64,000 nt of DNA from Neptuniibacter caesariensis. GTDB taxonomy: Bacteria; Pseudomonadota; Gammaproteobacteria; Pseudomonadales; Balneatricaceae. Every line of letters begins with the position of its first letter. Position 1 is the stretch's first letter. The position numbers were made by a program, and so were the translations under genes. Of this stretch, positions 24,942 through 40,623 are shown piece by piece. The DNA is taken from positions 596,287 through 660,286 of the forward strand of contig NZ_CH724127.1 in the NCBI RefSeq assembly GCF_000153345.1, written 5' to 3'. Under the pieces are notes generated by a model, which was not told where the DNA came from, ran no database searches, and saw only the letters and a program-made list of their open reading frames with translations.

Positions 24942-25013
24942 GGAACCTGCGAATAAGTCTCGGACTTTCTCAGTGGGCATAGAAAAGTCGTCCAGGACTT
25001 GTTCGCAGGTTCC
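24942..25013. repeat. 72-bp inverted-repeat element, MITE-like (copy 1)
   Basis: Ends are 18-bp inverted repeats with one mismatch, outermost GGAACCTGCGAA/TTCGCAGGTTCC. Its first 38 bases are identical to the first 38 of the larger element at 37860-38122. No target duplication is evident. It lies in the 373-bp gap (24673-25045) upstream of the GGDEF gene; the rest of that gap holds nothing I can name. The element is non-coding and would fold into one long hairpin. Confidence 0.75.
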
Positions 25014-37859: not shown

Positions 37860-38122
37860 GGAACCTGCGAATAAGTCTCGGACTTTCTCAGTGGGCAATA
37901 AAGCGACTTAGTGCGCGAAAGGCAGAGCAGTGTAATGACTGGTCCTTTCCAAACTGCCTGACAAAGCAGGAAGTCGCTTTAGTGCCCACCCAAAGGGGCT
38001 TTAAGAGCGATTCAATCTCTGCGCTAACGATCTTCGACGTACAACCAGTATGTCTGTAATCGTTGCCTTGATCTTGAACCGCTCTGAAAGCCTGAGTCGT
38101 TCAAGACTTGTTCGCAGGTTCC
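37860..38122. repeat. 263-bp inverted-repeat element with nested stems (copy 2)
   Basis: Outer ends match those of the 72-bp element at 24942 (GGAACCTGCGAA/TTCGCAGGTTCC, extended to 18 bp with one mismatch); its first 38 bases are identical to that copy. Inside are further pairs: 37891-37909 with 37971-37989 (one mismatch), AGGCAG/CTGCCT (37920 and 37954), 38004-38015 with 38074-38085 (one mismatch) and AACGAT/ATCGTT (38026 and 38059). No transposase is encoded. It is MITE-like and would form a branched RNA fold. Its right end overlaps the ccoI stop. Confidence 0.75.
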
Positions 38123-40623
38123 ATAACCTCGATGGTTTTCTGACCATTGGCTGTTTCTTTAGGGCTTATGCTTTTAGGTCGTTTGGGTTTTCCGTTAAGT
38201 CGCATGGCATTACCTACTACAACGAGCGAACTGGCAGACATGCCAAGCGCGGCCATATAAGGTGCGATAAAGCCAAGAGCCGCCAGAGGTAGTGCAAGTA
38301 GGTTGTAGCAAAGCGACCACCCAAGGTTCTCGCGAATAATGATTCGTGTCTTTCTCGCCAGGGTGATACCGTCGACCAAGCGTAGTAAGTCATGGCTGAT
38401 AAGTACGCCGTCAGCATTGGTTTTAGCAAGGTCAGTAGCGCTGCCCATGGCAATAGAAGTTTGCGCTCCGGCGAGGACCGGGATGTCATTAATACCGTCA
38501 CCGACCATGATAACCTGCGCTCCCTGCTCCTGAAGCTGCCTTACATGCTCAAGCTTTTCAGAGGGGGATACACCTGAAATAGTGGTATCGATACCTAAGG
38601 CATTTGCCACTTCGGTTACTGCGGAAGAGTTATCACCGGTCAGCATTTCACACTTGAGCCCCAGTTGCTTTAGGTAACCGATCGCTTCCTTGGCCTCTCG
38701 GCGAATCTGATCATTGAGACGGAACCAGGCAATTGGTTTTGTATCACTACACAGAAGTAACCATTGACCGCTCGTGGCTGGAAGTGCAGGCGCCGTGTTG
38801 CCGCATATCTCGGCAGCGAATTCAGGTTTCCCGATGCGGAAAGCCGCGCCGTCAATTAACCCGGAAATACCCTGGCCAACCTTGTTATTGATGTCGGTAG
38901 CCAACAGTTCCTGGGATAGCTCGGTAAATGCTCTCGCGATGGGATGCTCGCTATGCTGTTCCAGTGCTGCGGCGATCTTGATGCATTGTTCAGCTTCAAT
39001 ATCGGTCAGCGGGACAACTTCCTGAAGGCTCAGGTTGCCTTCTGTCAATGTGCCTGTTTTATCAAATACGACATGGCTTGCTGTGGCCAGGCTTTCCAGA
39101 ACATGCCCGCGCGTAATCAGAAGGCCGTTTTGGCGCAATGTGCCAGTGGCAGCGGTCAGTGCAGTTGGTGTTGCTAATGAAAGCGCGCAAGGGCAGGTAA
39201 CAACGAGCACAGAAAGGGTTATCCAGAAGGCATTAGCAGGGTCTACGACCCACCATCCAAGCCCTACGCCTGTTGCAGTGAGAAGGACCGCGGCTACGAA
39301 ATAGCTGGCAACCTTGTCAGCGATCTGGGCCGCTTTAGGCTTATCTTCCTGAGCGCGCTCAAGTAGACGAACGATCGCTGAAAGCTGAGTTTCCTGCCCT
39401 ACTTGTGTGATCTCAACGGTAATCGGGTTTTCCACGTTGATGGTGCCGCCCACTACTTGTGCTTCAGTTTCCTTACGGATAGGAAGGTACTCGCCAGTTA
39501 GTGCTGATTCGTCAACCGAACTACTTCCGGAGACAATAATGCCATCTGCAGGAATCGTATGGCCTGGCTTAATCAGCACCACATCACCGACCTTCAGATC
39601 TCCCGCCGGTACGAGCTGCTCTTCTCCATCGATGAGTTTTGTCGCACTGGCTGGAATTAGGTTAAGTAACGCATTTCCTGCGCGCCCGGTTCTGTGGCGG
39701 GCCTGCATTTCAAGAAAGCGGCCAATCAGAAGGAAGAAGGTAAACATCGTTACGGAATCGAAATAGACTTCGCCGCTATCGGTGATCGTGGCCCATACAC
39801 TGGCCAGATAAGCGCCATAAATAGCAATCGATACCGGAACATCCATGGTTAGATGGCGTGTCTTGATGTCACGAATCGCTGCGATGATAAAAGGCCGCGC
39901 AGAATAAAAGATAACGGGGGTAGCAATGACCATGCTCGCCCAGCGAATAAAGGTGACATACTGATCATCAATGCCTTGAAGGGCACCACCGTAGAGTGCA
40001 ACGGCTAGCATCATGGTCTGCATCATGCCTATGCCGGCTACACCTAATCTGCGGGTGGCGCGTTTCTTTTCCTGCTCAAGTAGCTGTTCTTCTTTATCGG
40101 GATGGTAAGGGTGGGCCTGGTAGCCAATCCGATAAATTTCGGCGAGCAGATGGCTAAGTTTGCATTCCGCGCGTAGCCAAGTGATTCGAGCCCGGTGATT
40201 GGTCAGGTTTACACTGACTTTAGTGACACCAGGGATGTTTCTGATGTGGTTCTCAAGAAGCCATACGCACGCCGCGCAGGTGATACCTTCTATGACAAGA
40301 ATGGCTTCAGATTCTTCGTCATTGCTGGTAACAAAACTGCTTTGGACGTTTTCATCGTCGTAGAGCCCCAATTCAAGAAGAAGGTTTTCAGGTAGTTCTT
40401 TTGCGTTGACTTCAGGGGCGGCTGCGGATTCAGTGCGGTGCTTGTAGTAGTTATCGAGGCCACTATCGACAATGGTTTGAGCAACGGCCTGACACCCAGG
40501 GCAACACATTGCCTTGGGTTGGCCGTTAATGATGGTCTGATACTTTGCGCCAGGCGGAATTGAAAGGCCGCAATGATAACAATCTGACGCAGTAGCAGGG
40601 GTTTCTATAGCTGGATCTTGCAC
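38101..40623 (-). CDS. ccoI: Copper-transporting P-type ATPase of cbb3 assembly
   Basis: 840 residues from GTG 40623. The N terminus has a zinc-ribbon-like part (CYHCGLSIPPG, CCPGCQAVAQ) and a heavy-metal domain with GITCAACVW; then eight membrane helices with TCPCALSLATP, the phosphorylation site FDKTGTLT, and GDGINDIPVL. This is the FixI/CcoI group that exports copper for the CuB centre. The final residues MEPANKS and the stop codon lie inside the inverted-repeat element, so the natural C terminus was altered by insertion. It follows fixH by 19 bp. Confidence 0.95.
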   Translation of the reverse strand: MQDPAIETPATASDCYHCGLSIPPGAKYQTIINGQPKAMCCPGCQAVAQTIVDSGLDNYYKHRTESAAAPEVNAKELPENLLLELGLYDDENVQSSFVTSNDEESEAILVIEGITCAACVWLLENHIRNIPGVTKVSVNLTNHRARITWLRAECKLSHLLAEIYRIGYQAHPYHPDKEEQLLEQEKKRATRRLGVAGIGMMQTMMLAVALYGGALQGIDDQYVTFIRWASMVIATPVIFYSARPFIIAAIRDIKTRHLTMDVPVSIAIYGAYLASVWATITDSGEVYFDSVTMFTFFLLIGRFLEMQARHRTGRAGNALLNLIPASATKLIDGEEQLVPAGDLKVGDVVLIKPGHTIPADGIIVSGSSSVDESALTGEYLPIRKETEAQVVGGTINVENPITVEITQVGQETQLSAIVRLLERAQEDKPKAAQIADKVASYFVAAVLLTATGVGLGWWVVDPANAFWITLSVLVVTCPCALSLATPTALTAATGTLRQNGLLITRGHVLESLATASHVVFDKTGTLTEGNLSLQEVVPLTDIEAEQCIKIAAALEQHSEHPIARAFTELSQELLATDINNKVGQGISGLIDGAAFRIGKPEFAAEICGNTAPALPATSGQWLLLCSDTKPIAWFRLNDQIRREAKEAIGYLKQLGLKCEMLTGDNSSAVTEVANALGIDTTISGVSPSEKLEHVRQLQEQGAQVIMVGDGINDIPVLAGAQTSIAMGSATDLAKTNADGVLISHDLLRLVDGITLARKTRIIIRENLGWSLCYNLLALPLAALGFIAPYMAALGMSASSLVVVGNAMRLNGKPKRPKSISPKETANGQKTIEVMEPANKS

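What the first reader, a model, noticed from the sequence alone, without database searches (positions are those of the whole stretch)
37860..38122. Two related MITE-like elements sharing identical ends
The elements at 24942-25013 (72 bp) and 37860-38122 (263 bp) share the same 18-bp terminal inverted repeats (one mismatch between arms) and their first 38 bases are identical. Neither encodes a protein. This pattern fits a non-autonomous transposable element family, with the short copy an internally deleted relative. I know no named family that matches, but cannot search.
Basis: seen in the sequence. Interest (0 to 1): 0.65.

Follow-up and report, generated by a model that had tools for sequence, protein, structure and literature searches.

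The report
Y-shaped two-armed transposable DNA element
The two look-alike stretches are small parasitic DNA elements that other elements' enzymes most likely move around the genome, and the longer one carries a Y-shaped folding core that also turns up, often with quite different ends, in many other bacteria of its class.

Summary
The 263-bp element has 16 full-length copies in its own genome plus deleted copies of 27-174 bp. All 10 other genus genomes lack it at the focal site. Ends and target site (4-bp YTAR duplication, 29 of 97 copies against 9.0 expected) are of the IS5 group. IS5-family insertion sequences with near-identical ends occur in relatives; none was found in the host.

The core is new. 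68 of 97 copies are exactly 263 bp. They fold into a Y: terminal repeats as stem, then two homologous ~97-bp hairpins in inverted orientation around a 7-base mini-hairpin; 66 of 95 pairs change on both sides. The core recurs in sampled genomes of the order and class, often with unrelated ends. In other families G-T mispairs outnumber A-C in the first arm of each strand (78 against 18), as if each strand carried one working arm. In the window's own family the same per-sequence test is level (20 against 21).

I file it as an IS5-group MITE, new variant. What the core does is inferred, not shown.

The parts
37860..38122 (+). Full-length two-armed element (263 bp)
   Evidence: absent at the orthologous site in all 10 other genus genomes
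37860..37877 (+). Left terminal inverted repeat, GGAACCTGCGAATAAGTC
   Evidence: paired with 38105-38122
38105..38122 (-). Right terminal inverted repeat, GGAACCTGCGAACAAGTC when read on the minus strand
37860..37890 (+). 5' side of the basal stem (terminal repeat plus covarying extension to the junction)
   Evidence: helices 1-2
37891..37989 (+). Arm B, ~99-bp imperfect hairpin with conserved internal loops and tip
   Evidence: model R1, 107.6 bits; covariation
37990..37996 (+). Mini-hairpin CC-nnn-GG between the arms
   Evidence: pairs that never vary, helix 6
37997..38092 (-). Arm D, ~96-bp hairpin, homologous to arm B in inverted orientation
   Evidence: R1 on the minus strand 21.0 bits against 9.2 on the plus strand; covariation
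38093..38122 (+). 3' side of the basal stem
24942..25013 (+). Internally deleted 72-bp relative
   Evidence: second copy with the same junction at C5:1362091-1362162
38101..38122 (-). Part of the element read as the last codons (EPANKS, stop) of the P-type ATPase gene 38101-40623

Best explanation
The element is a non-autonomous DNA transposon (MITE) moved in trans by IS5-group DDE transposases. These would bind the 18-bp ends and insert the element at YTAR, duplicating 4 bp. YTAR contains the stop codons TAA and TAG, which probably explains why many copies sit directly at gene 3' ends. Shown here: insertion against an empty site, copy families, ends, target duplication, and IS5-family elements with near-identical ends in relatives. 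Inferred: that those transposases move it. Beyond its ends it has a Y-shaped core of near-constant size: basal stem, two homologous ~97-bp hairpins in inverted orientation, and a 7-base mini-hairpin. This core recurs elsewhere in Gammaproteobacteria with terminal repeats often unrelated to these, so it is an inherited module and not a by-product of one set of ends. My preferred, inferred account of the core: each arm acts as a folded single strand (RNA, or single-stranded DNA) of its own sense. The two arms have opposite sense, so whichever strand is read, its 5' arm is the working one, and an insertion works in either orientation. Such an arm could shield neighbouring genes as an RNA hairpin or aid transposition as folded DNA. 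I give the MITE part about 0.93, the conserved terminus-independent core about 0.9, and this role of the core about 0.35 (raised from 0.3 after the strand test was mended).
For: Copies: 27 matches in the own genome, 16 full length; 31 of 116 family genomes, 7 of 16 genera. Empty site: the ATPase gene is followed by the next gene without the element in all 10 other genus genomes. Target: 29 of 97 copies have identical 4-bp flanks against 9.0 expected by mixing, mostly TTAG and CTAA; of lengths 1 to 8 only 4 is clearly enriched. IS5 inserts with motif YTAR (PMC10359306, passages). Partners: IS5-type ends and length (1158-1171 bp) in 12 of 20 fetched transposase loci and 4 of 30 earlier ones. Two of them carry GGAACCTGCGATTAAGTC at both ends, 17 of 18 letters. 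Two IS proteins hit NCBIfam IS5_4 at 3e-105 and 2e-107. Fold: -128.1 kcal/mol, z -11.9; 66 of 95 pairs changed on both sides against 38.8 shuffled and at most 27 slid, score 0.411 against 0.160. Core elsewhere: arm models hit 46 and 45 of 390 order genomes and 35 of 369 class genomes. A sequence-only profile of the core hits 59 of 75 such loci and 0 of 75 reversed ones. 60 of 65 have flanking inverted repeats 240-285 bp apart, against 0 of 65 placed 700 bases away. Sense of the arms: other-family arms show G-T 78 and A-C 18, 45 arms against 9; alignment counts for the two arms of 45 family copies give 126 and 54 in the same frame.
Against: No PF05598 or PF01609 protein was found in the host genome, so the mobiliser is not resident or lies in the missing part (completeness 98.14%). 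The focal copy has TTAG on the left and ATAA on the right, not a perfect duplication; it is one of 68 of 97 copies that lack one. On the window's own family the per-sequence strand test shows nothing: G-T 10 and 10, A-C 10 and 11. The role of the core rests on sequence signs alone; there are no transcription or transposition data.
Confidence: 0.85

Rival explanations
1. The whole Y is one structured RNA made from one strand, which spreads by hitching on transposon ends.
For: Very stable fold, strong covariation and conserved internal loops. G-T exceeds A-C on the plus strand in the basal stem and in arm B: 65 against 18 and 70 against 23 in 45 copies.
Against: Arm D leans to the opposite strand (plus strand 31 against 56), and so do arms in the same position in other families (34 against 12 when read on the opposite strand). 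No Rfam family matches at gathering thresholds in the window, and only two hits of E 2.6 and 4 near the element.
Confidence: 0.15
2. The pairing is not selected: replication template-switching in imperfect palindromes copies one side onto the other and so keeps the sides complementary.
For: About 92% of cells are Watson-Crick, and between 75 pairs of nearest neighbours 187 pairs changed on both sides.
Against: Internal loops stay unpaired and conserved (alignment A3; folds), whereas correction should erase them. The G-T excess on one sense of each arm is not expected. Single changes are common too: 244 to G-T, 161 to A-C, 200 other.
Confidence: 0.1
3. An ordinary IS5-derived MITE whose core similarity across families is only the similarity of any long hairpin.
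For: Covariance models reward palindromes: arm B scores 39.8 bits even on its wrong strand.
Against: A sequence-only profile without the terminal repeats finds 59 of 75 loci at E<=0.001 and none of 75 reversed loci. Arm D lies beside arm B in 11 of 15 loci checked.
Confidence: 0.05

Closest known systems
IS5 group of the IS5 family (IS5 of E. coli) and its MITEs
   Same: End form GGAAnnTGnGAAnAAGTC; YTAR target and 4-bp duplication (YTAR from PMC10359306, passages read); relatives carry full IS5-family elements with such ends. The end sequence of E. coli IS5 itself is recalled.
   Different: The core is not a visible remnant of an IS5 transposase gene, and it recurs in other families with ends unlike these.
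CIR repeats of Caulobacter and Brucella
   Same: Two long inverted repeats forming two arms joined by a linker (PMC2229807, passages).
   Different: By that text CIRs differ from elements with a 5'-3' end stem and expose GANTC at a loop; sequence not compared here.
ERIC, Correia/NEMIS, YPAL
   Same: Small intergenic mobile palindromes with stable predicted RNA folds, some thought to affect neighbouring mRNAs (PMC2229807, passages).
   Different: By that text repeat units are ~100-200 bp long stem-loops without arms, most with TA at the ends; these are ~263 bp, Y-shaped and YTAR-flanked. Sequence not compared.
QMITE1 and QMITE2 of Coxiella
   Same: Highly structured gammaproteobacterial MITEs (PMC5896051, passages).
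   Different: About 400 and 190 bp; direct repeats of 2-4 and 7-9 bp; sequence not compared here.

Membership tests
IS5-group MITE | Terminal inverted repeats of IS5-group form | tested here: met
   18-bp ends; near-identical to ends of 1158-1171 bp IS5-family elements in relatives
IS5-group MITE | 4-bp YTAR target duplication | tested here: met
   29 of 97 against 9.0 expected; the focal copy itself is imperfect
IS5-group MITE | No transposase inside, many copies | tested here: met
IS5-group MITE | Insertion relative to an empty site | tested here: met
   all 10 other genus genomes
IS5-group MITE | Matching transposase in the same genome | tested here: not met
   no PF05598 or PF01609 match in G000; desirable, not defining, since the source may be lost
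IS5-group MITE | Mobilisation in trans demonstrated | not testable with these tools
   needs a transposition assay
Structured RNA family (Rfam 15) | Match to a curated family | tested here: not met
   0 at gathering in the whole window; two hits of E 2.6 and 4 near the element
Structured RNA made from one strand | G-U pairs tolerated more than A-C on that strand throughout | tested here: inconclusive
   plus strand 167 against 97 but reversed in arm D; in other families each arm favours its own, opposite sense; own family level by the same method
CIR repeats | CIR sequence, GANTC in a loop | not tested
   only passages of a description were read

The most novel reading that the evidence does not exclude
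A class-wide superfamily of two-armed mobile elements whose unit of inheritance is the Y-shaped core, not the ends. The core has repeatedly acquired terminal repeats of different transposases, and its two arms are the same folded-strand device placed once in each sense. It therefore works in either orientation of insertion, raising its own spread or making insertions harmless.
Probability: 0.48. Interest if true: 0.83.

Novelty: new variant of a known kind. Interest (0 to 1): 0.68.

Why it matters
MITEs are usually seen as decayed transposons defined by their ends. Here the interior is what lasts: near-constant length and a conserved fold, with different ends in different families. If right, that makes it testable whether MITE interiors carry a function that selection sees, how non-autonomous elements change their mobilising enzyme, and whether two arms of opposite sense are a way to work in both orientations.

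Tried and rejected
Autonomous partner in the host genome: none by PF05598 or PF01609; other transposase families were not searched there. Rfam: nothing credible. Plasmid and phage collections: no match to the 263-bp query. Viral contigs with the ATPase protein: no relative. Chance similarity of hairpins: rejected by reversed decoys.

They are not, so its counts (G-T 10 and 9, A-C 14 and 14) mix strands and are void. reverse that. One search used the covariance-model strand, which can be biased towards G-T: 15 to 7 for R2 hits and 17 to 1 for R1 hits. needs no strand choice, since it reads the first arm of either strand.

Papers: the listings showed no description of this element that I recognised. 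The library is open-access only, and only passages of seven papers were read.

Rows dropped: of 102 candidate copies 5 scored below the cut and were left out of the 97; L075 was left out of the 96; 3 of 42 copies lacked flank; 10 of 76 loci lay too near contig ends, which also held one own-genome copy, left out; 6 of 59 loci lay too near contig ends. Among the 75 loci, two places are held twice (L267/L285 and L277/L290).

Full report
Observation. Both elements are as described: 37860-38122 (263 bp) and 24942-25013 (72 bp), identical for the first 38 bases, with 18-bp ends that differ by one base between the two sides. The one correction is that the right end of the longer copy is translated: it forms the last codons and stop (EPANKS, stop) of a P-type ATPase gene.

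Copies. The own genome (3.92 Mb, 6 contigs, 98% complete) has 27 matches, 16 of them full length at 68-100% identity. The end pattern shows further pairs spanning 27, 39, 47, 48, 51, 52, 55, 72, 84 and 174 bp. So there is a series of internal deletions. Some keep perfect flanking repeats, such as CTAG around a 39-bp copy and TTAG around a 52-bp copy. Two copies are 72 bp with the same internal junction. In the family, 31 of 116 genomes and 7 of 16 genera match, the own genome included. An exact arm pattern found 45 stretches in named genomes, all titled Neptuniibacter, Amphritea, Pontibacterium, Marinobacterium, Oceanospirillaceae bacterium or Osedax symbiont Rs2. From shared contig lengths (for example G068 and Neptuniibacter sp. 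PT1, 3952146 bases) I infer that the window's genus is Neptuniibacter. NCBI places it in Oceanospirillaceae, Oceanospirillales; the GTDB names Nitrincolaceae and Pseudomonadales are recalled, apart from the word Nitrincolaceae in some titles.

It is an insertion. All 10 other genomes of the genus have the ATPase gene (one of them, G065, as a partial match), and in all 10 the next gene follows without the element. For the 72-bp copy the test is weaker. Of 9 loci of other genomes, one (L103) keeps the neighbouring diguanylate cyclase start and shows no such ends between the genes. One (L105) could not be read, and the other 7 have a different downstream region.

How it moves. Among 97 full-length copies, 29 have identical 4-bp flanks against 9.0 expected by mixing flanks. 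No other length from 1 to 7 is enriched and length 8 has a single case. The motifs are TTAG (15), CTAA (9) and a few others. IS5 inserts with the motif YTAR (PMC10359306, passages). Insertion sequences of 1158-1171 bp with ends such as GGAACCTGCGATTAAGTC stand in 12 of 20 transposase loci fetched from the family. Eight of the 12 have identical 4-bp flanks, though the search gave such flanks a bonus. Four of 30 loci fetched earlier show the same type. Two of these IS proteins (L325, L315; 321 aa) hit NCBIfam IS5_4, and L325 hits Pfam DDE_Tnp_1 and DUF772. One such IS lies in the same genome (G104) as full-length copies, with right end GGAACCTGCGAATAAGTT, but its frame carries a stop. The host genome itself has no match to DUF772 or DDE_Tnp_1. 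The focal copy has TTAG and ATAA at its flanks, not a perfect duplication.

Where it sits. Of 39 copies with enough flank (of 42 tried), 38 are intergenic (12 divergent, 8 convergent, 18 tandem) and 1 lies inside an ORF. By my count from that listing, 16 of 34 neighbouring gene 3' ends lie within -25 to +11 bases of the element, against 4 of 42 gene 5' ends (simple ORF calls, the range chosen after looking). YTAR contains TAA or TAG, so insertion at a stop codon is an easy explanation (inference).

The core. 68 of the 97 copies are exactly 263 bp. As RNA the plus strand folds at -128.1 kcal/mol (z -11.9, none of 200 shuffles as good) and the minus strand at -126.6. The shape is a Y: the terminal repeats and 13 further bases form the stem, then arm B (37891-37989), a CC-nnn-GG mini-hairpin (37990-37996) and arm D (37997-38092). 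On 31 diverse copies, 95.4% of cells pair (shuffled 82.0%, slid at most 42.2%), 66 of 95 pairs change on both sides (shuffled 38.8, slid at most 27), and the covariation score is 0.411 (shuffled 0.160, slid at most 0.071). The structure came from the same family's copies, so the slid control leans in its favour. Arms B and D are homologous in inverted orientation: the arm B model scores arm D at 21.0 bits on the minus and 9.2 on the plus strand.

Beyond the family. The arm D model hits 46 of 390 genomes of the order (26 of 142 genera), the arm B model 45 of 390 (29 genera), and the arm B model 35 of 369 genomes of the class (29 of 272 genera). The own genome is included each time, and only 10 or 11 candidates per genome were scored. 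Such models reward any palindrome (arm B scores 39.8 bits on its wrong strand). I therefore ran a sequence-only profile of the core without the terminal repeats: 59 of 75 loci at E<=0.001, none of 75 reversed loci even at E<=1. 60 of 65 loci with enough flank have inverted repeats 240-285 bp apart around the core, against 0 of 65 positions 700 bases away. The median span was 267; because a palindromic target duplication can lengthen the repeat, the true span is often shorter, and 42 of the 57 loci gave 260-267 bp. In 11 of 15 loci checked, arm D sits beside arm B. Yet the ends differ. Of the 59 loci, 25 have ends no more like GGAACCTGCGAATAAGTC than 10 of 18, the range of 57 of 59 shuffled flanks; 5 have 11 and 29 reach 12 or more (end positions extrapolated from the profile match). 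Words include GGAGCCTCTGAATAAC, GGGCACCTCTAATAATTG, GGGCCTGTTGACGTTTCG, TAGTGTAGCGTC and TTACTAAGACAAACG.

Sense of the arms. A folded single strand tolerates G-T (G-U) better than A-C, and on the other strand the two swap. On the family alignment the plus strand of 45 copies has G-T 167 and A-C 97. Arm B favours G-T (70 to 23) and arm D A-C (31 to 56), so each arm favours G-T when read in its own sense. In other families, reading the first arm of either strand 5' to 3', which needs no choice of orientation, B-position arms give 44 to 6 (42 arms after removing near-duplicates) and D-position arms read on the opposite strand 34 to 12 (36 arms). Together this is 78 to 18, and 45 arms to 9 (53 loci). 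Against this, the same per-sequence method on the window's own family gives 10 to 10 and 10 to 11, and related arms are not independent. An earlier version of the test mixed strands and is void. I read this as selection on a folded single strand of each arm, RNA or single-stranded DNA, with the two arms in opposite sense. Template-switch correction of palindromes would not give such a bias and should erase the conserved unpaired loops.

Verdict. Membership: IS5-group MITE, with the mobiliser inferred from relatives. New: a conserved two-armed core that persists with unrelated terminal repeats. Its function is open; I prefer a device that works in either orientation because each strand carries one arm in the right sense, at about 0.35. 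Odds changed by the mended strand test: role of the core 0.3 to 0.35, one-strand RNA 0.2 to 0.15, template-switching 0.2 to 0.1, novel reading 0.45 to 0.48 (its interest 0.82 to 0.83), overall interest 0.66 to 0.68.

Noticed in passing
38101-38122: The element's right end supplies the last residues and the stop codon of the P-type ATPase (ccoI-like) protein; orthologues in the 10 other genus genomes end differently.
   Followed up: yes
L017 and L018 (G000 C3:504895-505003, C5:1377320-1377429): Two truncated copies begin at nearly the same point in the tip of arm D, share the same altered right part, and have TTAG near both sides, as if a form with almost no left repeat had moved.
   Followed up: partly
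L141, L026 and G000 C5:1186117-1186155: 39-bp copies that are little more than the two terminal repeats back to back, L026 with a perfect CTAG duplication.
   Followed up: partly
L266, L267, L276, L277, L284, L285, L288, L290: In four genomes of one family (f8) the core carries ends GGGYCTGTTGACGTTTCG with TA beside the right end, suggesting another transposase type.
   Followed up: no
L264 and L280: Variants in which the second arm is replaced by a short simple hairpin (203 bp in all) or by a longer, different fold (313 bp).
   Followed up: no
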